A DNA stretch of 64,000 bases from an uncultured Gemmatimonadota bacterium (GTDB taxonomy: Bacteria > Gemmatimonadota > Gemmatimonadetes > Gemmatimonadales > Gemmatimonadaceae): contig CAIRYG010000014.1 of the NCBI GenBank assembly GCA_903882745.1, forward strand, positions 62,001 through 126,000, given 5' to 3'. Position numbers and translations under genes: made by a program. This document shows, in pieces, positions 1 to 11,217 of the stretch. Within the stretch, counting starts at the first letter, position 1. Every line of letters starts with the position of its first letter. The notes beneath the pieces were generated by a model. The model was not told the DNA's origin, ran no database searches, and saw only the letters and a program-made list of their open reading frames with translations.

Positions 1-1425
1 CGCATTCATCCGATACCGAACGGCTCCGCAGTACGCGGTCGTCAGCTGATCCGTAAACAGCCCCGAGGGATCGTTGATCGTCCAGCCGATGGTCGGCGCA
101 ACGCCAGCGGCCGACGGGGTCGTACTACTCGGCGTGATGCTAATGCTGGGAACAGCTAACGTGAGATTCGACGGCGTCAGTGACCCGAGGACCACTGGAA
201 CGCCCGTCATCGAACCCGTGGCGGCAACCCGCGGGCTCAGCGTGTCACCACTGAGCGAATCGATCGCCGCGATGCGATAGAGGTACGTCCCGGCGGCCGC
301 TGCGGGAAGATCGATGGTTGCCGAGCGAGCGGTCGTCGCGAGCGAGGTGAAGGTAGCCTTGCTCGAGCTGTCCATCGCGATACTCCACGCCAAATACCCG
401 CGGACGGGGACCGGCGAGGTCACCGCGACGCGGATCCCCTGCGCCGGCGCTGCGCCGATCGCCAGCGACGCTTGGGCGGTACGGCCCGCCGCGGTCATGG
501 TGATAGTGGTCGTGCCATTGCCGACCGCGGTCACGATGCCCGTAGAATCCACGGTCGCTTTGGAAGGATCGCTCGAACTCCAGCTCTGCCGCACGCATCC
601 TGCGAGCGGCGCGCCAAGGCTGTCGCGCACGGAAGGGGCGAGGGCGAGCACCTGTCCAACCGAGAGCGACTGCGATGCGGGGGTGACAGCGACGGACGAG
701 ATGGCAGGAATGATCCCCGCCGGAGTTCCGGTGCGCGTGGTGGTGGGCAGGCCAATCGACGCGCGAGCAATCTGCTGCGCATCGATGATGTTCACTGCAC
801 CGTCGGCATTCACGTCGCCGGCGTTGTTCATGAAGAGCGAATTGACAATCGGCAGGGCGACGGCCAATCGCGACACCTGTTGCGCGTCGAGGATGTTCAC
901 GACGGTGTCGCCATTCACATCGCCCCACTTACTGATCGGAACCACACAGACGTCCAGCCCGCGGGACTGCAGCGCAGTGCCAAGCGCAACGCCGGCATCG
1001 GTACCACCAGAGACGCCATTCAAGGCAACCCGCGTGCCACCGATCGTGGGCTGCGCGGTAAAGTAGAGCGTCGCGATCGTGGTGCGGGTGGTGGCGCCGG
1101 TTGTGGTAAAGAGCGAGAGTGCCGCCTTGCCGTTGGCGGCGTCGGCGGTGTTCGTGGTGAGGGTGCCAAATCCAGCCGCGACCACCGAGTCCAACGTCAT
1201 GCGCCCTGGCGTCCAGTTCAGCTGTGCCGAGAGGGAGGCGATGTTGCCCCCACTACTTGGCGTCACGACCATGGGGATCGCGATCTTACCACCGGGTGCA
1301 ACTTGCGCGGCTGGCGTTGCGCCGACCGAGACAATGACCGGTGATTGGGCAACAACAGCGGCCGGCGCGCTCGCGAGGAGCGCGCTGACCGCCGCGAGTC
1401 CAAGCGGCGGAAAGAGACGACGCAT
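1..1425 (-). CDS. Secreted cohesin-like/dockerin-like/Ig-like protein, 3' end cut by window edge
   Basis: An open frame runs from an ATG at 1425 to the left edge without a stop, so about 475 residues are visible. Residues 1-27 form a signal peptide (hydrophobic core, AxA-type end before QSP). Residues about 29-158 are a cohesin-like beta-sandwich. Residues 168-228 carry two dockerin-like loops, DVNGDTVVNILD and DVNADGAVNIID, which match the DxNxDxxxNxxD calcium pattern, each followed by an AQQ helix. Residues about 244-330 are a bacterial Ig-like (Big2) domain. The start lies 4 bases after the stop of the upstream gene and has no Shine-Dalgarno sequence, so translational coupling is likely. 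It is the last visible gene of the five-gene operon. Its architecture up to here copies that of the upstream 2046-residue protein; whether RCC1 blades follow cannot be seen. Confidence 0.85.
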   Translation of the reverse strand, partial: MRRLFPPLGLAAVSALLASAPAAVVAQSPVIVSVGATPAAQVAPGGKIAIPMVVTPSSGGNIASLSAQLNWTPGRMTLDSVVAAGFGTLTTNTADAANGKAALSLFTTTGATTRTTIATLYFTAQPTIGGTRVALNGVSGGTDAGVALGTALQSRGLDVCVVPISKWGDVNGDTVVNILDAQQVSRLAVALPIVNSLFMNNAGDVNADGAVNIIDAQQIARASIGLPTTTRTGTPAGIIPAISSVAVTPASQSLSVGQVLALAPSVRDSLGAPLAGCVRQSWSSSDPSKATVDSTGIVTAVGNGTTTITMTAAGRTAQASLAIGAAPAQGIRVAVTSPVPVRGYLAWSIAMDSSSKATFTSLATTARSATIDLPAAAAGTYLYRIAAIDSLSGDTLSPRVAATGSMTGVPVVLGSLTPSNLTLAVPSISITPSSTTPSAAGVAPTIGWTINDPSGLFTDQLTTAYCGAVRYRMNA

Positions 1426-1429
1426 GACG

Positions 1430-4400
1430 TTAGATGCCAGTGACGGTGAACACGACGTTTCCGAGACCGGAGACCGTCGCGGTGACAGTGTTGATACCAG
1501 GGGTGGAGCCGAGAATCCAAGCGGGAAGGGTGGCGACACCGCTCCCACTGGTGACCACAGTCGTGGTGGTCACGACCGACGTCGAGCTGAGTGAGCCGCC
1601 GCCGGTAGTGACCGTGAAGGTCACCGTGGCGTTGGACACACCGTTCCCGGTGTAGTCGCGGACCTTCACCGAGAGCGCATTACTGAGCGTTGAGCCAACC
1701 GCTGCCGATGCGGCGGGGTTGGTATTCGCAATCACGGCAATCGCGGTGCCTGCGGTACCCGTGATCCAATTGGTCGGCGTGAGCACCGCTGAACCATTGG
1801 CGGTGTTATTTCCGATGGCGCCATTGCTGCCAGTGCCAGCGCAGAAGGGGACGCCGCCCGTGCTGATGCCGCAGCTGTTGCTACCAGAGAGGCGTACCGA
1901 GGTCAGCGTCAATCCACCGAGCGCGGCAACGGGGAGCGTGCGACTCGTGGTGGTCGTGGTCCCGTCGGCAAGGCGGCCATCGGTGCTGGCGTAGCCCCAG
2001 CACCAGAGCGCGCCGGCGGCGTTTAGACCGCACGCATGGCTGATGCCGAGAGCCAGACTCACGAACGGTTGCGTGGTGACGACTTCGGTGGGCGATGTTC
2101 TGTTTGCCGAGGACCCATTCCCGAGCTGCCCTTGGCTGTTCTGGCCCCAGCAGAGTGTCGTGCTCGTTGTTGTGATGCCGCAGGCGAACTGCTCGCCCAC
2201 CCGCAGCTGCGTATAGCTGCGTCCATCGTTGACGCGCGTGGGGGTCGGTCGCACCGTAAAGGCCGCATTGACGGGCGATCCGCCCGTGGTCCCATCAGCG
2301 GTGAAGCTGCCGCCGCCCCAGCAGTACAGGGCGCCCGCGCTCGACAGTCCGCACGCGAGGTTGCGTCCCACACCCATCTGCGAGAACGCAACGCCGCCGG
2401 TATTGACGAGCTGCGGGGTGAGCGAGGTCGTGCCCAGTACGCCGTCACCGAGGAGCGACAGATCATTGGAGCCCCAGCAATACATGGCGCCGGCGGCCGT
2501 GAGACCGCAGCTCGAGCTCCGACTCACGGCAAGCTGGGTGAACACAAGGATGCCCTTCACCGCGACCGGCGCCGTGGCGTCGGTATAGGTGCTGTCGCCA
2601 ATCTCGCCGAAGCTGTTCGAGCCCCAGCAATACGCGGCGCCTGCGGCGGTGAGACCGCACGTATGATCCGCGGTGCCCACCGACAGCTTCGTGAAGGTCA
2701 GTCCGCCGGACACGGCGGTTGGAACGTTGCGCGCCGTCAGCGTTCCATCCCCAATCTGACCGCGGCTGTTAAATCCCCAGCACGCGGCGCTGCCCGTGCT
2801 CGTCAGGGCACAGTTGGCATTGGAACCGTTGTCCAGGCTGTACGATCCCACTGTGGTAGCTGTGAACGTCACGGGTGAGAGACCGCTGACCGTGGCGGTC
2901 GCGGTATTCGTGGTCGACTGCGTCCCGCCCAATGTGTAGGTGACCTTGGCGATTCCGTTGGCGTCGGTCACCGCCGTCGCCGGCAGGGAGCCAGCTCCCG
3001 CGGTGACGGCGAAGCTCACGGTGATGCCGGACAGCGGATTTCCGCCGGCGTCCCGCACAATGACACCGATCGACCCAGGGAGCGCGGCGCCGGCGAACTG
3101 TCGCTGCTGATTGCCAAACGCCATCGCAACCGTCGCGGGACTGTTCGTCACTACGGAGTTCACAGCGAGCGTCAACATCGGCAGCCCATCGACCACTGCG
3201 CCGATCGTGACGGCCGCCGCGGTAGACGGGAGGATATACCCCGAGGTGGACGCGAGCCCCGTGGAATCGGTCTTGACGATGCTCCCAATCAGGGTGCCGC
3301 CCCCACTCAGAATGCTGAATGTCACGGTGGTTCCAACCACCGGTCGCCCAAGGCGATCGCGCACCAGCACCTGTGGCGGTGTGGTGAGCGTCGCTCCTGC
3401 GTTGGCCGATTGTCCGTTCAACCAGGCCGTCGTCGGGAGAATCGTAGCGGCAATTCCAGCACCCGGACCATCCGGCCACCCGACGACCATCGCGGGGGTG
3501 GTGCGTCTTCCACCTGCCGCCACAACAGTCGTGCTGTCACCCAGCTGCCCGTAGCTGTTTTGGCCCCAGCAGTAGAGTTCTCCGCTTACCACTCGACCGC
3601 AGCGGCCGCGGAAGCTCACGGTTCCTGCATCCACAAACGACATCCCCTGCAGCTCGACGGGCGAGGTTCTCGTCTGGAGGTCGCCGAGACCAAGCTGCCC
3701 GCCAGTGTTCGAGCCCCAGCAAAAGAGATGTCCGTCGACCCGCCGAGCGCAGACCGAGTAGTTGCCAATCGAGACGTCCACAAACCGTCCATCGTCCGGC
3801 ACAATCTCGGCCGGGAAATTCCGAGCGTCCGTCGTAGTGCCGTCGCCGAGCGCTCCGGTGGAGCCACCAACGCCCCAGCATGCTACGTTCCCGCTCGTGG
3901 TAACGGCACACATGTTCACTGTGGAGCCGGCGATGCGCGCGACGGTGAGCCCGCCAAGAATCGGCGTGAAGGCAAAGCGATTCGTAAAGGTGCCGTCACC
4001 GACGGTCCCGGCGGAATTGTCGCCCGCGCACTGCACCTCTCCAGAGGGCGTCACCCCGCAGATGCCGTTGCCCCACAGCGCAATCTGCTTGAAGCTCGCC
4101 GTGCCAAGGGTGACGAGCACCGGGCTCAGCGACCGGCGGTCACGGAGTTCCACGTGGCCCATCCCGGACGACTGCATGTAGCCCCAGCAGTACACACTTC
4201 CGGATGTTGTCAGTGCGCAGGTCGTGCTCTCGAGAGTGACGATTTGCGTAAAAATTGCGGTCGTTGCTACGGCAATCGGTGTGCTGCGGTCGGTCGTGGT
4301 TCCATCGCCGAGCTGACCGGCGTGGTTCGCACCCCAGCAATAGGCGGCGCCTGCCGCGGTCAGTGCGCACGCGTGCTGCGAGAACCCATCTGAAATTTTT

Positions 4401-7400
4401 GCGAAGACTTGGGACCCCGAGACCGGGCGTGCATAGTTGCGCGCGCCGGTGGTGGTCCCGTCCCCGAGCTGTCCCCGTTCGCCCTCGCCCCAGCAATACA
4501 CGGTTCCTGCTTTCGCGAGCGTACAGTGCGTATTCCGGAGCAACGCACCCGCAAAAAAGCCCGGATGGAAATAGGTGAAGGTTACCCCAGAGGAAACACC
4601 TGATGCCGACGCGGTAATTGTGACGGTCGACGGCGTTGGGAGCGTCAGTGTGGAGAGCGAATCCACCCCCATCACCGCCAATCCGGTGCTATCGCTCGTA
4701 ACGATTGCACTGCCGCCACTCGACAAAGCGAACGTGACGGGAATGCCCGCAGCGGCTGTTCCTGCCGCGGTGAGCACCCGAACGGTTGGCGAGAGCAGGG
4801 GCAACACCTGTGACCGAGTAATGCTGTCACCGTCAACCTTTACCATGCTCACCGCAGACGAAACCGCGCTCGCCTTCGCATAGAAGAGCACCGACGCGCT
4901 CGTGCCATTCGCCATCGCAGCGGTCGCCTTCAGCACCTGAATCCCGACGGCCGACCCGAGCACCCAGCTCCCAACGGAGGCGCTCCCCGAGGCGTTCGTC
5001 GTGGTGGTCCCGCCCGTGACTGATCCGCCGCCACTCACCACACTAAACGTCACCGTCACACCCGCCACGCCATTCGATCGCGAATCACGAATGGCCAACG
5101 TTGGCGCGCTTGCTACGGCCGCATTGATCACGCCCGCCTGCTGAAACGATCCGCCATCTTGACGCATGGTCGCGGCACCGCTGCTCGAGCCGGCGGAGAG
5201 CACCACAGACGTCGGAAGCGTCCGCGCTGTCGCGGTCCCGTCGCCAATCTGCCCGGCGCCGTTCTGCCCCCAGCACATAACCCCGAGTCCACCGGTCGCA
5301 AGCGCGCAGGTGTGTCCCATGGCCTGCATGAAGCCACCGGACACAAGCTGCGAGCCTGTTCCCATCACCGGCACCGGCGCCGTCCGCGTGGGGCCGCTCG
5401 AGACGTTGTCGCCGAGCTGGCCATAGCCGTCATTGCCCCAGCACCAGAGCGATCCATCCGCTTTCGCCGCGCAGGTTTTCTCATCGCCCGCGCTGATTTC
5501 TGTAAACTGGTGTCCACCACGTACCGGACTGGGCGACAACCGCGACACCAACGTACCCGCCTCGAGGTCAGCACCATCGCCAACGGCATTGCTCTGGCCC
5601 CAGCACCAGGCGGCGCCGGCACTGGTGAGGGCACAGCTGTGCGAGTTACCCGCCGAAATCGCGGTCAGTCCGCTCAGGCCAACGATCGCCGTCGGGGTGT
5701 TGACGGTCGTCGTCGTTCCAGAACCCAAGGCGCCGTCATGGCCATAGCCCCAGCAGTAGGCGGTGCCGGCGTTCGAAATCGCACAGGTGAAGCCACTTCC
5801 GGCAGATAGATCCGTAAACGTCACGCCCGTTGGCATCTTCACGGCGCGCGGTACGGCGGAGAAGTTCCCCCAGGTGCTGTCACCGAACTGCCCGGCGACA
5901 TTCAGGCCCCAGCAATACGCGAGTCCCGTCGTGGTCAGCCCGCAGCTGTGCGCCGCACCGGTGGAAATCTTGCTGAAGCGGAGATTGCCCGCGACGAGCG
6001 TTGGCACCGAGCGGTTGGTGCGCGAGCTGTCACCGACCTGTCCCGCGGAGTTAGAGCCCCAGCAGTAGCCGACGCCGGCCGTGGAAACCCCGCACATGTG
6101 ATCGCCCGTATTGTGCTGCGTGAGCGACGCAAAGGTCACCCCGCCAGAGACGGGTACCGGAACCGAACTGCCCCCCGTGCCGCCATTGCCCAACTGCCCG
6201 AGACTGCCGTTGCCCCAGCAGTAGGCCGCGCTCCCCACAAGTCGGCAGCTGTGCTGTCCGGTAGGTGTCGCGATCACGCCGAGATTGAAGGTGGCGTTCG
6301 CGCCATTGTCGAGGGTCGCTGTCACGGTCACGGCGCCTGGAGTCGTGCCCAACAGCAATGCGCCCGGCAGCGCGGCAATGCCCGCATCGTCGGTGCGTCC
6401 CTGCGCGCTGGTGATGCTCGCGCCATTGAGCTGCAACGTCGCATTGGTCATGCTCCACTGCACATTCCCCCGCACAACCGGCGCGCCATACGGGTCGAGC
6501 ACACGCACCGTGGGGACCATCGGCAGCGGATAGTTCGCAATGCCGTACTGCGCGTCCCCGGCCACCACCGACAGCGTTGTTCCCGTGCCCGACGTCGACG
6601 CACCAACGGTGGCCGTCACCGTCGCGCTCTTGGAGCCAACCGTTGCCGTCAGCGTCGCCGATCCGAGCGCGACGCCCAGCACGTCACCGGCATCGGTGAC
6701 TTTCACTTTCGTGGTATCGCTACTGCGCCACCGCACCGGCACGCAGCCCGCCAACGGCATGGTGTTGACGCTCAACGCCAGCGCCGACACTTTGCCCCCC
6801 GATCCCACACCGACCGAAATACCCGAGGCGGGGGTCGCGGTCACCGAAGCGACGGCCGGCATCACGAAGGTGCTCCCGCCAATCCGCGTCGGCGCCGACA
6901 ATCCAATCGCAAAACGCGCAATCTGCTGCGCGTCGATGATGTTCACGGTACTGTCCGCCGTCACATCGCCGGTCGAGCCGAACTGCTCGGGATTCGCGAC
7001 CGAAAGTCCCACCGCCGCGCGCGCAATCTGCTGCGCATCAAGAATGTTGATGACGCTGTCGCCATTCACATCGCCCCACTTCCCGAACGGAGCCACGCAC
7101 ACATCCAAGCCGCGGCTCGCCCGAGGGGTCGCGAGCTTGCTCCCCATAAGATTCGACGCTTCCGACACATCGAGCGCAAGCTGTGAACCCGCCAGCGAGT
7201 AGCTCCCCGTGAACCACGCAATCGCAATGGTGCTGCTCCCAGCAGCCACCGTGCTACTAAACACGCCAAGCACCGCTCGGCCGTTGTACTGATCAATCAT
7301 CGGGCGGTCGATGGCACCGAACGTACCGGCTGTCACCGAATCCAACGTCAGGGCAACAGGGTTCCAGGTCAGCTGCGCCGCAAGCGACGCGACCGGCGCG

Positions 7401-7570
7401 CCTCCCGCTTTGGTCACGTCAAGAATCAACGGGACGCGGAGCGTGCCGCCCAGCGCGACCTGCGCGGTCGCTGCAGGACCGGCCGACAGCAGAATCGTTG
7501 TTTGCGCAGCCATCGTCACCGGCAACGCGGTGGCGATCGCAACAGACAGAACACGACGAAAAACGGACAT
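1430..7570 (-). CDS. Giant secreted cohesin-like/dockerin-like protein with three 7-blade RCC1 propellers
   Basis: The protein has 2046 residues when started at the ATG at 7570, which opens a clean signal peptide (MSVFRRVLSVAIATALPVTMAAQ region, residues 1-23). The longer frame to 7642 would put 24 non-signal residues in front. Residues about 27-158 are cohesin-like. Residues 165-225 are a dockerin-like pair (DVNGDSVINILD and DVTADSTVNIID). Residues 240-330 are Big2-like, followed by a Big_1-like domain. Then come 21 RCC1-type blades in three groups of seven (DNA about 6260-5230, 4530-3500 and 2830-1800), separated by Big_1-like domains, with one more Big_1-like domain at the C terminus. Every blade has a cysteine pair spaced about 9 residues, the second usually in CWG. 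Blades recur every 148-168 bp. No sorting signal is visible. It is the fourth gene of the operon, and its ligand is unknown. Confidence 0.9.
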   Translation of the reverse strand: MSVFRRVLSVAIATALPVTMAAQTTILLSAGPAATAQVALGGTLRVPLILDVTKAGGAPVASLAAQLTWNPVALTLDSVTAGTFGAIDRPMIDQYNGRAVLGVFSSTVAAGSSTIAIAWFTGSYSLAGSQLALDVSEASNLMGSKLATPRASRGLDVCVAPFGKWGDVNGDSVINILDAQQIARAAVGLSVANPEQFGSTGDVTADSTVNIIDAQQIARFAIGLSAPTRIGGSTFVMPAVASVTATPASGISVGVGSGGKVSALALSVNTMPLAGCVPVRWRSSDTTKVKVTDAGDVLGVALGSATLTATVGSKSATVTATVGASTSGTGTTLSVVAGDAQYGIANYPLPMVPTVRVLDPYGAPVVRGNVQWSMTNATLQLNGASITSAQGRTDDAGIAALPGALLLGTTPGAVTVTATLDNGANATFNLGVIATPTGQHSCRLVGSAAYCWGNGSLGQLGNGGTGGSSVPVPVSGGVTFASLTQHNTGDHMCGVSTAGVGYCWGSNSAGQVGDSSRTNRSVPTLVAGNLRFSKISTGAAHSCGLTTTGLAYCWGLNVAGQFGDSTWGNFSAVPRAVKMPTGVTFTDLSAGSGFTCAISNAGTAYCWGYGHDGALGSGTTTTVNTPTAIVGLSGLTAISAGNSHSCALTSAGAAWCWGQSNAVGDGADLEAGTLVSRLSPSPVRGGHQFTEISAGDEKTCAAKADGSLWCWGNDGYGQLGDNVSSGPTRTAPVPVMGTGSQLVSGGFMQAMGHTCALATGGLGVMCWGQNGAGQIGDGTATARTLPTSVVLSAGSSSGAATMRQDGGSFQQAGVINAAVASAPTLAIRDSRSNGVAGVTVTFSVVSGGGSVTGGTTTTNASGSASVGSWVLGSAVGIQVLKATAAMANGTSASVLFYAKASAVSSAVSMVKVDGDSITRSQVLPLLSPTVRVLTAAGTAAAGIPVTFALSSGGSAIVTSDSTGLAVMGVDSLSTLTLPTPSTVTITASASGVSSGVTFTYFHPGFFAGALLRNTHCTLAKAGTVYCWGEGERGQLGDGTTTGARNYARPVSGSQVFAKISDGFSQHACALTAAGAAYCWGANHAGQLGDGTTTDRSTPIAVATTAIFTQIVTLESTTCALTTSGSVYCWGYMQSSGMGHVELRDRRSLSPVLVTLGTASFKQIALWGNGICGVTPSGEVQCAGDNSAGTVGDGTFTNRFAFTPILGGLTVARIAGSTVNMCAVTTSGNVACWGVGGSTGALGDGTTTDARNFPAEIVPDDGRFVDVSIGNYSVCARRVDGHLFCWGSNTGGQLGLGDLQTRTSPVELQGMSFVDAGTVSFRGRCGRVVSGELYCWGQNSYGQLGDSTTVVAAGGRRTTPAMVVGWPDGPGAGIAATILPTTAWLNGQSANAGATLTTPPQVLVRDRLGRPVVGTTVTFSILSGGGTLIGSIVKTDSTGLASTSGYILPSTAAAVTIGAVVDGLPMLTLAVNSVVTNSPATVAMAFGNQQRQFAGAALPGSIGVIVRDAGGNPLSGITVSFAVTAGAGSLPATAVTDANGIAKVTYTLGGTQSTTNTATATVSGLSPVTFTATTVGSYSLDNGSNANCALTSTGSAACWGFNSRGQIGDGTLTARNVPTAVSGGLTFTKLSVGTADHTCGLTAAGAAYCWGSNSFGEIGDSTYTDATAPVAVKGILVFTQLAVSRSSSCGLTAAGAMYCWGSNDLSLLGDGVLGTTSLTPQLVNTGGVAFSQMGVGRNLACGLSSAGALYCWGGGSFTADGTTGGSPVNAAFTVRPTPTRVNDGRSYTQLRVGEQFACGITTTSTTLCWGQNSQGQLGNGSSANRTSPTEVVTTQPFVSLALGISHACGLNAAGALWCWGYASTDGRLADGTTTTTSRTLPVAALGGLTLTSVRLSGSNSCGISTGGVPFCAGTGSNGAIGNNTANGSAVLTPTNWITGTAGTAIAVIANTNPAASAAVGSTLSNALSVKVRDYTGNGVSNATVTFTVTTGGGSLSSTSVVTTTTVVTSGSGVATLPAWILGSTPGINTVTATVSGLGNVVFTVTGI

Positions 7571-7657
7571 GCGCTTCAGCCCAGTTCGGGGGAGACTCAG
7601 CACTTCACAAACACGGGGGCACTTGTTGAACGCGTGCATCACCGTGTGTAGTTCAGA

Positions 7658-8176
7658 TCAGCGTGACTCAGGAGACCGACGACCGCTGCCTGCAGGGCGC
7701 GCGTCCTCGATCCCCGACGAACCCATGAGCGCGCGCTTCGCAATCGCGTGCCCCTCGACATCTCCTGCCACTTCAAGCGTCACCACCAGCGCCGCCTTCT
7801 CCAGCGACGATCGGCGATGCGCCACCAGCCGTACCGCGTCCGTGCCAACAAATCCCGTCGCCGTAAATCCAGCGAACCGCACCGACCCTTTACTCACCGC
7901 GTTGGGATTCACAAATCGAAAGCCATCACGTCCAGCGCTCACACTATCCACCACCAGCACTGCCGGATCAAACGTCATCGTCCCCTGATACGAGCCGAGG
8001 GCGAACCCCGAGGCGTCCACGTGCAGGGTGAGCACGGTATGCGCATCCGTCGACCCCGCCTCGCGCTCCACATGTGTCCGCACCGACGGCGCAGCCGTCA
8101 CGCGTTGTGCGGCGGTCGTGGATGGTAGCTGCCACACACTTCCCACCACGGTCGCGCACGCCAGCCACCGGAGCAT
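7658..8176 (-). CDS. Small secreted cohesin-like protein
   Basis: The protein has 172 residues. The first 23 form a signal peptide ending in TAAQ, and there is no lipobox, so it should be soluble in the periplasm or outside the cell. The mature part looks like one cohesin-like beta-sandwich, with YQGTMTFDPAVLVVDSV resembling the cohesin pattern of a Dp..L core strand and GSVRFAGF a later strand. It is a clear paralogue of the lipoprotein just upstream (shared YQG..TFDP, GFRFVN/EFRIVN, VRFAGF, and related C-terminal strands). GAGG lies 6 bases before the ATG, next to the stop of the upstream gene, 8 bases away. The C-terminal tail (GSGRRSPESR) is polar. The cohesin assignment rests on sequence pattern only. 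Confidence 0.8.
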   Translation of the reverse strand: MLRWLACATVVGSVWQLPSTTAAQRVTAAPSVRTHVEREAGSTDAHTVLTLHVDASGFALGSYQGTMTFDPAVLVVDSVSAGRDGFRFVNPNAVSKGSVRFAGFTATGFVGTDAVRLVAHRRSSLEKAALVVTLEVAGDVEGHAIAKRALMGSSGIEDARPAGSGRRSPESR

Positions 8177-8184
8177 CGGGATCC

Positions 8185-8736
8185 TCAGCGTACCACCACC
8201 ATCCCGCTGTAGAGATCGCGCAACGCGTTGCTCGCCTTGAGCGACGAGGCACGAATCGACGACCCGGTGGTCTCACCGGCGACGTCGAGCTTGCCCACGA
8301 TGTTCACCGGCACCTTGCCGGGCTTGAAGACGCCGACCAAGCGGAAGGCTTCGGTGTTCGAAAACTTTTCCGTGGCAAACCCGGCGAACCGCACGGTGCC
8401 GCTCGCCACCTCGGCGGCATTCACAATGCGGAACTCGCCAGTGGTCCCGGTTGGCGTCGGCACCTGACTGATCGACATCGCGTTCGGGTCAAAGGTCAGC
8501 ACCCCTTGGTAGGACGCGACCGGCACACCATTGCCGACGACGCTGACCACGAAGATTGCGCTGTCGCCACTGGTGCGCGTGTCCTGCTGCACCATGACTT
8601 GCACATTCCCCGTGCCCACCAGGGTCACCAGGTCCGTCTTGGGTGCGGTGGGATGCTTCTCCGCGCACGACGTGACCACGACCATCGCCGCGAGAGCGGC
8701 ACCGGCAAGACTCAGTTTGATTGCGCGCGACTTCAT
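8185..8736 (-). CDS. Cohesin-like lipoprotein
   Basis: The protein has 183 residues when started at the ATG at 8736, chosen because GGAGGA lies 7 bases upstream and because this start opens a lipoprotein signal (MKSRAIKLSLAGAALAAMVV then TSC, lipobox cysteine near residue 23). The mature part holds a single cohesin-like domain (YQGVLTFDPNAMSIS, FRIVNAAEVASGTVRFAGFA). It would be tethered to a membrane by the lipid. It is paralogous to the next gene downstream, which has a normal signal peptide instead of a lipobox. It lies 30 bases after the stop of the 816-residue lipoprotein, in the same operon. A role as an anchored receptor for the dockerin-bearing proteins downstream is inference. Confidence 0.82.
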   Translation of the reverse strand: MKSRAIKLSLAGAALAAMVVVTSCAEKHPTAPKTDLVTLVGTGNVQVMVQQDTRTSGDSAIFVVSVVGNGVPVASYQGVLTFDPNAMSISQVPTPTGTTGEFRIVNAAEVASGTVRFAGFATEKFSNTEAFRLVGVFKPGKVPVNIVGKLDVAGETTGSSIRASSLKASNALRDLYSGMVVVR

Positions 8737-8743
8737 AACGACA

Positions 8744-8749
8744 TCCTCC
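8744..8749 (-). promoter_or_regulatory. Shine-Dalgarno GGAGGA that fixes the start of the cohesin-like lipoprotein
   Basis: GGAGGA on the minus strand with a 7-base spacer to the ATG at 8736. It rules out the upstream in-frame start at 8766, and is one of the strongest ribosome sites in the window. Confidence 0.7.
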
Positions 8750-8766
8750 AAGGGAAATCCGAACAA

Positions 8767-11217
8767 CTACGGGACGATAGTGACGAGCAACGGACGTACG
8801 GCGAGCGGAACAGCGGCGGCGTTTTCATTGCCCGCAGCGGTCGCGACGAGTCCGACGGTGGATGTGGTATTCGCGGCGCCACTCTTCGGGCGCAGCGTAA
8901 TCGTGTACAGCGTGGTGGTCGCGGTCGCCGCCGTCGGCGAGAACACGCCAACCGTGACCTTGCCGCTCGACGCCGCACTCGTGTTCTCGAACACGGAGCC
9001 GAAGGTGCCGACCGCACTGGAGACGAAGGAGAACTTGGTGCTGTCGAACATGATGTCAAAGCTGGCCGATGCGAGGGTGTTCCCCTGCGGATACGTCAGG
9101 TCGAGCACCACGGGAATGGTGAGTGTCCCAGCCATCGCGACCGAGGCGCTCGCAATGCTCGCCTCACTGCCAGCGTTCAGCGTGAGTCCGCGTGCGCGTC
9201 CGGCGGCGGTGAAGGTCGTGGGGGCCGTGACCCCCGCGCAGCTGGCGGTCAGTGTCTGCGCTCCCACCGTGGAGCCAAGGGTCCAGCTGCTGCTGATCGT
9301 GGCGGTCGCTCCGGTCACGCCACTGGCCGTTCCAACCAATCCACCACTGTTCGCCGCAAAGGTGACGGTGGCGCCGCTGATCATGTTTCCATTCGCGTCA
9401 GCGACCTGCACCATCGGCGCAATCGGCAACAGGGCACCAACGAAATAGCTCTGCGCCGTAGCGCTGACAGGCGTGCAAACCGCCGGCGCACCAACCGCGA
9501 TAGCGAAGGCCGAGCTCGTTGCCGCGGTGACCCCAGACGCTGTCGCGCTCACCTGATATCCCGTCCCCGCGCGCGTGATGCGGGCGGCGTTGAACGTCGC
9601 GACGCCGTTCACTGGTGTGGCGGTGACGGTACCGCCGAGCACGGCGGTAATCACGCCGGTCGTCGCCGTGTTCGCGAGGGAGAGCGATACTGGTGTGGTG
9701 AACCCGGTGGCCAGATTGCCGTAACTGTCGAGCGCACGGATCACGAACGTCGGAATCGGGCCATCGGCCGTGCCGTTCGTGGGTTGGGTGCCGAACTGCA
9801 ACGAGACCGCCGCCGCAGGGGTGACCGCAACCGCGCTGGTCGTAGCGCTCGTGAGCCCGGTCGCGGTCGCGCTCAGCGTGTAGCCGGTCCCGACTTTCGT
9901 CAACTGAAGACCACCGAAGGTGACAACGCCGGCGTTGGCGGTGCTTGTGGTGGTGCCGAGCAGCGAGGCGCCGGTCGCGCCGGTCCCAGTGGCACCACCC
10001 GCCAACGCCACCGTCACCGATCCGACAAACGAGGTCGCGGTGTTACCGAACACATCGCGCGCCGTGAACTGCACGTTGCCGAGTGACTGTCCTGCCGTCA
10101 CGGACGCGGGCGGATTCGTAGTGGCCGCGAGTGCCGTGGCAACGCCCGGCGTGGCCGTGGCCTTGAACGTCACTGGCGAACCGCTGAGTCCGGTGGCAGC
10201 GAAGGTCGCCGTCTGCGAACCCGCAGTCCCGCCCAACGTCCAGGTCGTGGTGGCCAAGCCGTTCGCATCGGTGGTCAACTGCGAGACCGGCGCCGTTGCA
10301 CCAGTGCCGAAGGTCACCGTGATCGGCGTGCCTGCCAGAGGCAATGCATCGGACCCGAGCACACGCACCACCAGCGGATTCGTGAGCGGCTGTCCCACCA
10401 CACCCGTTTGGTTGTCGCCAGAAACAGCCGCAACCGACGATGCCGCGGCATTGACCGTGAGCACGACCGTGTCCTTGGGGCCCGTCAACAGCTCGGCGAC
10501 AATACGCGCCGTCCCACGCTTGTTCGCGGTGCCAACACCAGTTGCAGCGTTCGTGATCGAGGCCACCGCGGTGTCGAGCGATGTCCACTTGATCGGGGTG
10601 TTCGCGACCGCGTTGCCGCCGGCATCCAGTGCGTTCGCTGTCCACGTGAATGACTGACCGATAAACACTTGCTGCGTACGCGGGCTGATCACGACGGACT
10701 TCGTCGTTGCACCCGTGCCGGTGTAGGTCACCGTCACCGTGACTTGCGCCGGAGTTGGCGTGGTGCCGCCCGTGCCGCTGGTGCCAGTGACGGCCGTCGC
10801 CACGATTGGCGCCGCGCCGCGGAATACGGTGTCGCCGGCGGGACTCACATACTTCAGGTTCATGTTCAGCGGCTCGCCCGTCGACGGCGCTGACGGCGAG
10901 AGCGGAACTTCCATGCTCACCGTGACGGAGTCCTTGCCATCAGGGAAGGTGACCATCGTGTCGAGCGCCACCGTGCTATCTGCGCGATACAAAACGACTC
11001 GCACCTTCGCCACAGGCACCAACGCGCTCGTGCCCGGCGCAATATCGCGAAGCGCCTCCGGGAACCTGGTCAGAAAGCTGATCCCGCGTGACATAATCCG
11101 AAGTCCACGACCAGGAGCCGTAACCTCACGCGCACAACTCGCGGCCCCCGCAATCAGGAGCAGCATGAGAAGCGCGTATCGACGCAGCGAACGACCGACG
11201 GGCACGTGCAGACGCAT
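8767..11217 (-). CDS. Large Ig-domain lipoprotein with C-terminal cohesin-like domain
   Basis: The protein has 816 residues from the ATG at 11217; an AAGG lies about 10 bases upstream. The N terminus is basic, then hydrophobic (YALLMLLLIAGAASC), with a candidate lipid-attachment cysteine at residue 28. The lipobox is imperfect because the -3 residue is Ala. After a region of about 120 residues come at least four Ig-like modules: a Big2-like one (about 165-245), a Big_1-like one opening with SGDNQT (about 255-355), then two related modules with ARD/RALD..GN motifs. Residues from about 675 on are cohesin-like (LTIPVVLDL, ASFDIMFDSTKF, GKVTVGVFSP). It is the first gene of the five-gene operon and faces the SURF1 gene across 244 bases. 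A cell-surface scaffold role is inferred from its lipid anchor, length and C-terminal cohesin-like domain. Confidence 0.85.
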   Translation of the reverse strand: MRLHVPVGRSLRRYALLMLLLIAGAASCAREVTAPGRGLRIMSRGISFLTRFPEALRDIAPGTSALVPVAKVRVVLYRADSTVALDTMVTFPDGKDSVTVSMEVPLSPSAPSTGEPLNMNLKYVSPAGDTVFRGAAPIVATAVTGTSGTGGTTPTPAQVTVTVTYTGTGATTKSVVISPRTQQVFIGQSFTWTANALDAGGNAVANTPIKWTSLDTAVASITNAATGVGTANKRGTARIVAELLTGPKDTVVLTVNAAASSVAAVSGDNQTGVVGQPLTNPLVVRVLGSDALPLAGTPITVTFGTGATAPVSQLTTDANGLATTTWTLGGTAGSQTATFAATGLSGSPVTFKATATPGVATALAATTNPPASVTAGQSLGNVQFTARDVFGNTATSFVGSVTVALAGGATGTGATGASLLGTTTSTANAGVVTFGGLQLTKVGTGYTLSATATGLTSATTSAVAVTPAAAVSLQFGTQPTNGTADGPIPTFVIRALDSYGNLATGFTTPVSLSLANTATTGVITAVLGGTVTATPVNGVATFNAARITRAGTGYQVSATASGVTAATSSAFAIAVGAPAVCTPVSATAQSYFVGALLPIAPMVQVADANGNMISGATVTFAANSGGLVGTASGVTGATATISSSWTLGSTVGAQTLTASCAGVTAPTTFTAAGRARGLTLNAGSEASIASASVAMAGTLTIPVVLDLTYPQGNTLASASFDIMFDSTKFSFVSSAVGTFGSVFENTSAASSGKVTVGVFSPTAATATTTLYTITLRPKSGAANTTSTVGLVATAAGNENAAAVPLAVRPLLVTIVP

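What the first reader, a model, noticed from the sequence alone, without database searches (positions are those of the whole stretch)
1..11217. Five-gene operon of cohesin-like and dockerin-like surface proteins with no hydrolase
Five co-directional genes, gaps of 30, 8, 87 and 4 bases, all encode exported proteins with a cohesin-like beta-sandwich. Two of these also carry paired DxNxDxxxNxxD loops like dockerins (residues about 165-228 in each). Two others have lipid-anchor signals. Seen: the motifs, signals and spacing. Known: cohesin-dockerin pairs build cellulosomes and occur scattered in non-cellulolytic bacteria. Inferred: a dedicated, calcium-dependent surface complex in which lipoproteins hold the dockerin-bearing RCC1 protein. 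No glycoside hydrolase or CBM is in the operon, so its purpose is open.
Basis: partly seen in the sequence, partly recalled or inferred. Interest (0 to 1): 0.85.

Follow-up and report, generated by a model that had tools for sequence, protein, structure and literature searches.

The report
Cohesin lipoproteins tethering dockerin beta-propeller proteins
A Gemmatimonadota bacterium carries a five-gene operon in which two lipid-anchored proteins bear the 'socket' domain of the cellulosome and two giant secreted proteins bear the matching 'plug', and the same socket-plus-plug gene pair recurs in at least 20 genera of the class, so cellulosome-type docking appears to be used here to hold beta-propeller proteins, not cellulases, on the cell envelope.

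Summary
Five genes on the minus strand (gaps 30, 8, 87 and 4 nt) all encode exported proteins with a cohesin domain. Two (D and E) also carry type-I dockerins over Pfam's cut-off, and two (A and B) have lipoboxes. E runs off the window for another 6 kb. AlphaFold models of B and of the N-terminus of D match solved cohesins best (VIA Z 12.6 and 14.9). No hydrolase or CBM was found in the complete operon.

The same genome has a second, unlinked cassette (contig C2) of cohesin proteins followed by a VPS10/BNR beta-propeller with a C-terminal dockerin. Across 394 genomes of the class, cohesin occurs in 60, dockerin in 66 and both in 45. In 39 of those 45 a separate same-strand cohesin gene lies within 8 kb of the dockerin gene. 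Small cohesin proteins are usually lipoproteins (23 of 33); dockerin proteins almost never are (2 of 42).

Best reading: a non-cellulosomal, calcium-dependent tether in which lipoprotein cohesins hold interchangeable secreted cargo (RCC1, VPS10 or PD40 propellers, beta-helices, some peptidases). Binding and outer-surface location are inferred, not shown. New variant of a known kind.

The parts
8767..11217 (-). Gene A, 816 aa: lipobox (AASC), Ig-like stalk, C-terminal cohesin (clade II)
   Evidence: Cohesin 30.3 bits, over cut-off; Ig-like hits
8770..9198 (-). Cohesin domain of A
8185..8736 (-). Gene B, 183 aa: small lipoprotein (lipobox VTSC) made of one cohesin (clade I); candidate dockerin receptor
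   Evidence: (Z 12.6 to 2jh2)
7658..8176 (-). Gene C, 172 aa: exported single cohesin (clade I), no lipobox
1430..7570 (-). Gene D, 2046 aa: signal peptide, cohesin, dockerin, Ig, three RCC1 propellers with Ig spacers
7151..7504 (-). Cis cohesin of D (residues 23-140, clade II)
   Evidence: (Z 14.9 to 4uyp)
6899..7078 (-). Dockerin of D: two F-hand repeats, recognition helices NILDAQQIAR / NIIDAQQIAR
6596..6862 (-). Big_2-like Ig domain of D
5201..6283 (-). RCC1 block 1 of D (7 CWG blade motifs; limits approximate)
3491..4558 (-). RCC1 block 2 of D (7 CWG blade motifs; limits approximate)
1766..2848 (-). RCC1 block 3 of D (7 CWG blade motifs; limits approximate)
1..1425 (-). Gene E, 2472 aa (continues outside the window to G000:C14:56007): signal peptide, cohesin, dockerin, Big_2, about seven tandem modules of 215-320 aa without a Pfam family, Big_1
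973..1341 (-). Cis cohesin of E (clade II)
751..927 (-). Dockerin of E: recognition helices NILDAQQVSR / NIIDAQQIAR

Best explanation
The operon encodes a non-cellulosomal cohesin-dockerin tether. B (and probably A) are lipoproteins that sit in the envelope and present a cohesin. D and E are secreted giants whose dockerins (two calcium-binding F-hands) dock onto those cohesins, which fixes D's three RCC1 beta-propellers and E's repeat modules at the cell envelope. D and E share almost the same recognition helices in both repeats, so they probably compete for or share the same cohesins, and the docking probably has the two-fold (dual) mode known from type-I dockerins. The propeller cargo probably binds an extracellular ligand; which one is unknown. 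SHOWN: domains, folds of B and of D's N-terminus, lipoboxes, operon order, and recurrence of linked cohesin and dockerin genes across the class. INFERRED: physical binding, calcium dependence, outer-surface location, and ligand binding by the propellers.
For: Cohesin identity: Pfam for A; a family profile against PDB sequences returns cohesins almost only (2vn5 6e-9, 1g1k, nagJ, 2xdh); AF2 plus Foldseek/VIA for B and D. Dockerin identity: Pfam 4.4e-7 and 1.3e-9; conserved ligand residues in all four repeats but for one T. Second cassette in the same genome on C2. Class-wide, 45 of 394 genomes have both domains (60 cohesin, 66 dockerin; Fisher 5e-30, not phylogeny-corrected; 2.6e-13 with genera as units); 39 of the 45 have a linked separate cohesin gene, and the cohesin is upstream in 45 of 51 linked places. 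The same order in another family of the order: G031 has A, B and then four cohesin-dockerin giants. Minimal pairs in family f8, a small cohesin lipoprotein plus a giant with N-terminal dockerin and no cis cohesin, one cargo carrying RCC1. Lipobox in 23 of 33 small cohesin proteins against 2 of 42 dockerin proteins. Cohesin and dockerin distances correlate across 25 loci (Mantel r 0.46, p 0.0002), and B's nearest cohesins outside its close relative are beside D's nearest dockerins (L097, L098), not in the same genome's other locus.
Against: No binding data, and AlphaFold-Multimer was not available. Co-inheritance of whole cassettes would also produce the correlated distances. 21 genomes have a dockerin hit without a cohesin hit and 15 the reverse, though sensitivity explains at least one of them (G001 has a weak cohesin in L051). 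C has no lipid anchor, so it is not an anchored receptor. Only 5 of 17 'big' A-type proteins passed the lipobox rule, partly because start codons were not refined. The outer face of the outer membrane is not shown.
Confidence: 0.75

Rival explanations
1. The dockerin of D and E packs against the cohesin next to it in the same chain (an intramolecular module), and the small cohesin proteins serve something else.
For: Cohesin and dockerin are adjacent with a short linker that carries a conserved cysteine. The N-terminal module of D is predicted with good confidence (pTM 0.74). Cis cohesins are kept in many genera.
Against: Family f8 and the VPS10-type cassettes have dockerin proteins without any detected cis cohesin but with an adjacent separate cohesin gene. 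Small cohesins form their own supported group and are usually lipoproteins.
Confidence: 0.12
2. D and E chain head to tail: the dockerin of one molecule binds the cis cohesin of the next, giving a calcium-dependent fibre that starts on A or B. (Compatible with the best explanation, as an addition to it.)
For: Each giant carries one cohesin and one dockerin. G031 has four such giants in one operon. One-cohesin/one-dockerin adaptors are known in cellulosomes (own knowledge).
Against: Cis cohesins belong to a different group from the minimal-pair receptor, so the same dockerin need not bind both. There is no interaction evidence.
Confidence: 0.2
3. The cohesin and dockerin domains are generic structural beta-sandwich and EF-hand modules of adhesin-like surface proteins, with no docking between them.
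For: Ig-like and cohesin-like sandwiches are common in surface proteins. Weaker structural matches (rank 42 onward) include collagen-binding adhesins and a CLIPPER adhesin domain.
Against: Top structural and profile matches are cohesins. Genomic co-occurrence and gene linkage of the two domains far exceed chance. Recognition helices are near-identical between the two repeats of the window dockerins.
Confidence: 0.1

Closest known systems
Non-cellulosomal cohesin/dockerin proteins, e.g. the Archaeoglobus fulgidus cohesin (2xdh) and Clostridium perfringens NagJ cohesin (2jh2)
   Same: Single cohesins outside cellulosomes; B and D match these folds among the best.
   Different: Here two lipoprotein cohesins and dockerin giants form one operon that recurs across a class; cargo is mainly beta-propeller or beta-helix proteins.
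Proposed 'planctosome' of freshwater Planctomycetes (PMC6461901)
   Same: Non-cellulolytic; an anchoring protein with a cohesin, an adaptor with both a dockerin and a cohesin, and dockerin-bound cargo. Also a genomic model only.
   Different: Its anchor is a lamin-tail protein and its cargo peptidases. Here the anchors are lipoproteins and the window cargo has no catalytic domain, although a few relatives carry S8, M6 or M8 peptidases.
Cohesin/dockerin proteins of ANME archaea and their bacterial partners (PMC9012536, PMC10553843)
   Same: Non-cellulosomal docking proposed for extracellular assembly and adhesion.
   Different: Those include multi-cohesin scaffoldins and ABC substrate-binding cargo; here one cohesin per protein.
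Clostridial cellulosome
   Same: Type-I-like dockerins with two F-hands; cohesin folds near to cellulosomal cohesins.
   Different: No multi-cohesin scaffoldin, CBM or glycoside hydrolase in the operon; cohesins on lipoproteins of a diderm bacterium.

Membership tests
Cohesin (PF00963) | Sequence match over the family's cut-off | tested here: inconclusive
   Met for A (30.3 bits) and for G031 homologues of A, B and D; below cut-off for C and E, not listed for B and D.
Cohesin (PF00963) | Nine-stranded cohesin beta-sandwich | tested here: met
   AF2 of B and of D residues 22-330; best Foldseek and VIA matches are cohesins, Z 12.6 and 14.9. A, C and E were not modelled.
Cohesin (PF00963) | Binds a dockerin | not testable with these tools
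   No complex prediction or binding assay available.
Dockerin type I (PF00404) | Match over cut-off with two F-hand repeats and calcium ligands | tested here: met
   D 30.4 and E 38.6 bits against cut-off 22.9; D/N at the ligand positions of all repeats except one T in D repeat 2; three helices in the model.
Dockerin type I (PF00404) | Near-symmetrical recognition residues (dual binding mode) | tested here: met
   D NILDAQQIAR/NIIDAQQIAR, E NILDAQQVSR/NIIDAQQIAR. The link to dual binding is from own knowledge.
Cellulosome | Scaffoldin with several cohesins | tested here: not met
   At most one detected cohesin per protein in the genome.
Cellulosome | Dockerin-bearing glycoside hydrolases and CBM | tested here: not met
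   No GH or CBM in A-E. The third dockerin protein (C2) is a VPS10/BNR propeller with only a sub-cut-off NCBIfam glycosylhydrolase match, 110 against 175 bits.
Non-cellulosomal cohesin-dockerin system | Complementary cohesin and dockerin proteins in one genome, without cellulolytic partners | tested here: met
   Two cassettes in this genome; linked pairs in 39 genomes. Complementarity is by domain content and linkage, not by binding.
Non-cellulosomal cohesin-dockerin system | Location on the outer cell surface | not testable with these tools
   Lipoboxes on A and B, and a GspD-like secretin followed by a GspE-like ATPase, allow it but do not show it.

The most novel reading that the evidence does not exclude
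D and E form calcium-dependent head-to-tail chains through their own cohesin-dockerin pairs, nucleated on lipoprotein cohesins, making a modular surface fibre whose subunits are beta-propellers or beta-helices, with two cohesin clades dividing the roles of anchor and chain link.
Probability: 0.2. Interest if true: 0.8.

Novelty: new variant of a known kind. Interest (0 to 1): 0.62.

Why it matters
It would show that cohesin-dockerin docking works in a diderm phylum as a general lipoprotein-based tether with exchangeable, mostly non-enzymatic cargo, unrelated to cellulose. The cassettes give natural cohesin-dockerin pairs of at least three recognition classes for binding tests and protein engineering. 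They also give a first handle on what the exported RCC1 and VPS10 propellers of these bacteria do.

Tried and rejected
Whole-protein Pfam scan missed the cohesin of A, B and D; the genome scan, a family profile and structure prediction were needed. Profile A1 'hits' in 389 of 394 genomes are mostly its Ig part (positions about 210-305) and were not used. A named-genome scan with alignment A1 failed for lack of conserved stretches; a single-protein scan worked and gave Gemmatimonadetes MAGs. A type IX secretion search with SprA_N found nothing, but nothing rang in the controls either, so absence is not shown. Promoter and terminator scan gave no more than chance. Literature searches found no description of a Gemmatimonadota cohesin-dockerin system in the held library; Peer et al. 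2009 was not held. The E-values come from models that contain the window sequences and are used for mapping only. A first run of the distance test failed on a wrong ORF key and was repeated.
Full report
WHAT IS THERE. The window is G000:C14:62001-126000 of a 3.06-Mb genome. Named relatives of the D module are Gemmatimonadetes MAGs, the closest from Lake Pavin at 91% identity. On the minus strand five genes follow each other: A 11217-8767, B 8736-8185, C 8176-7658, D 7570-1430 and E from 1425, with gaps of 30, 8, 87 and 4 nt. E is cut by the window edge and ends at C14:56007. The genes on either side run the other way.

DOMAINS. A is a lipoprotein with an Ig stalk and a C-terminal cohesin (Pfam 30.3 bits, over cut-off). 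B is a small lipoprotein that is essentially one cohesin. C is similar but has no lipobox. D has a signal peptide, a cohesin, a type-I dockerin, an Ig domain and 21 CWG-type blade motifs in three groups of seven, which is what three seven-bladed RCC1 propellers would give, separated by Ig domains. E has the same N-terminal cohesin-dockerin-Ig module followed by about seven repeats of a kind without a Pfam family. No catalytic or CBM family was found in any of the five.

FOLD TESTS. A family profile of 31 small and A-type cohesins, searched against PDB sequences, returns cohesins almost only, best 2vn5 at 6e-9. AlphaFold2 of B (pLDDT 82, pTM 0.75) has as best matches the C. perfringens cohesin 2jh2 (Z 12.6) and, close behind, the A. 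fulgidus cohesin 2xdh (Z 11.8); the first 41 VIA rows are cohesins. AlphaFold2 of D residues 22-330 (pLDDT 89, pTM 0.74) gives a cohesin (Z 14.9 to 4uyp), three dockerin helices and an Ig domain.

RECURRENCE. A second cassette lies on contig C2 of the same genome: Ig-plus-cohesin protein, small cohesin lipoprotein, cohesin-plus-TIG protein, and a VPS10/BNR propeller with a C-terminal dockerin whose first F-hand is degenerate. In 394 genomes of the class the cohesin profile hits 60 and Dockerin_1 hits 66, with 45 in common; Fisher 5e-30 with genomes as units and 2.6e-13 with genera as units, neither corrected for phylogeny beyond that. In 39 of the 45, from 20 genera and five families, a separate same-strand cohesin gene lies within 8 kb of the dockerin gene, and in 45 of 51 linked places a cohesin is upstream.

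VARIANTS. G031, of another family in the order, has A, B and four cohesin-dockerin giants that overlap each other by 4 nt, with beta-helix or PD40-propeller bodies. Genomes of family f8 show the minimal form: a ~175-aa cohesin lipoprotein next to a 1000-2500-aa protein with an N-terminal dockerin and no cis cohesin; cargo with RCC1 repeats occurs there too. Other cargo includes VPS10/BNR propellers, NIDO, and in three cases peptidases of families S8, M6 and M8. By a simple rule a lipobox is present in 23 of 33 small cohesin proteins and in 2 of 42 dockerin proteins. Near-identical loci from sister genomes are among these counts.

SPECIFICITY. The dockerins fall into classes by their recognition helices. 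D, E and seven relatives have NI(I/L)DAQQ(I/V)xR or nearly so in both repeats; the G031/G331 group mostly has xRDALxxLS; the VPS10 group is asymmetric. Cohesin and dockerin distances correlate over 25 de-duplicated loci (Mantel r 0.46, p 0.0002). Leaving out the close relative G014, B's nearest cohesins are those of L097 and L098, whose dockerins are also nearest to D's, while the other locus of the same genome is far on both counts. Whole-cassette inheritance would give the same pattern, so this supports cognate sets but does not prove binding. A tree of 70 cohesins splits small proteins (B, C) from A-type and cis cohesins with support 99/98, with a few rows of each label on the other side; many inner forks are unresolved.

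MECHANISM. The most likely reading is a tether: lipoprotein cohesins hold secreted dockerin proteins at the envelope through calcium-loaded F-hands. The minimal pairs point to B as receptor. What A's cohesin and the cis cohesins do is open; a chain of D and E is possible. The genome has a GspD-like secretin followed by a GspE-like ATPase, and a second secretin, so a route across the outer membrane may exist, but surface location was not shown.

COMPARISON. It works like a cellulosome joint but is not a cellulosome: no multi-cohesin scaffoldin, glycoside hydrolase or CBM. The nearest proposals are the planctosome, the ANME and partner proteins and the Cloacimonadota complex. No paper on such a system in Gemmatimonadota was found in the held library.

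Noticed in passing
G000:C2:2159-8049 (L006), outside the window: Second cohesin/dockerin cassette of the same genome with a VPS10/BNR propeller; such dockerin proteins in the genus end in a conserved C-x-G-x-x-R tail.
   Followed up: yes
G000:C14:306234-306299 (L009, ORF of 331 aa): A single F-hand loop (DVDEDGRITYLD) inside an exported protein that looks like a peptidase M15 (by eye); sub-cut-off Dockerin_1 hits at E about 0.004-0.01 in similarly sized ORFs of several genus and family members.
   Followed up: no
window 1-1425 and L005:12007-19425: E consists of about seven tandem modules with a VDSGGL-like motif that match no Pfam family.
   Followed up: no
L040:18376-19500: In G031 the gene just upstream of the cassette encodes an exported protein of at least 374 aa without a Pfam match that looks like an outer-membrane barrel (by eye).
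   Followed up: no
L106, L107, L097: Dockerin proteins with peptidase domains (S8, M6, M8) in relatives, so cargo is not always non-catalytic.
   Followed up: partly
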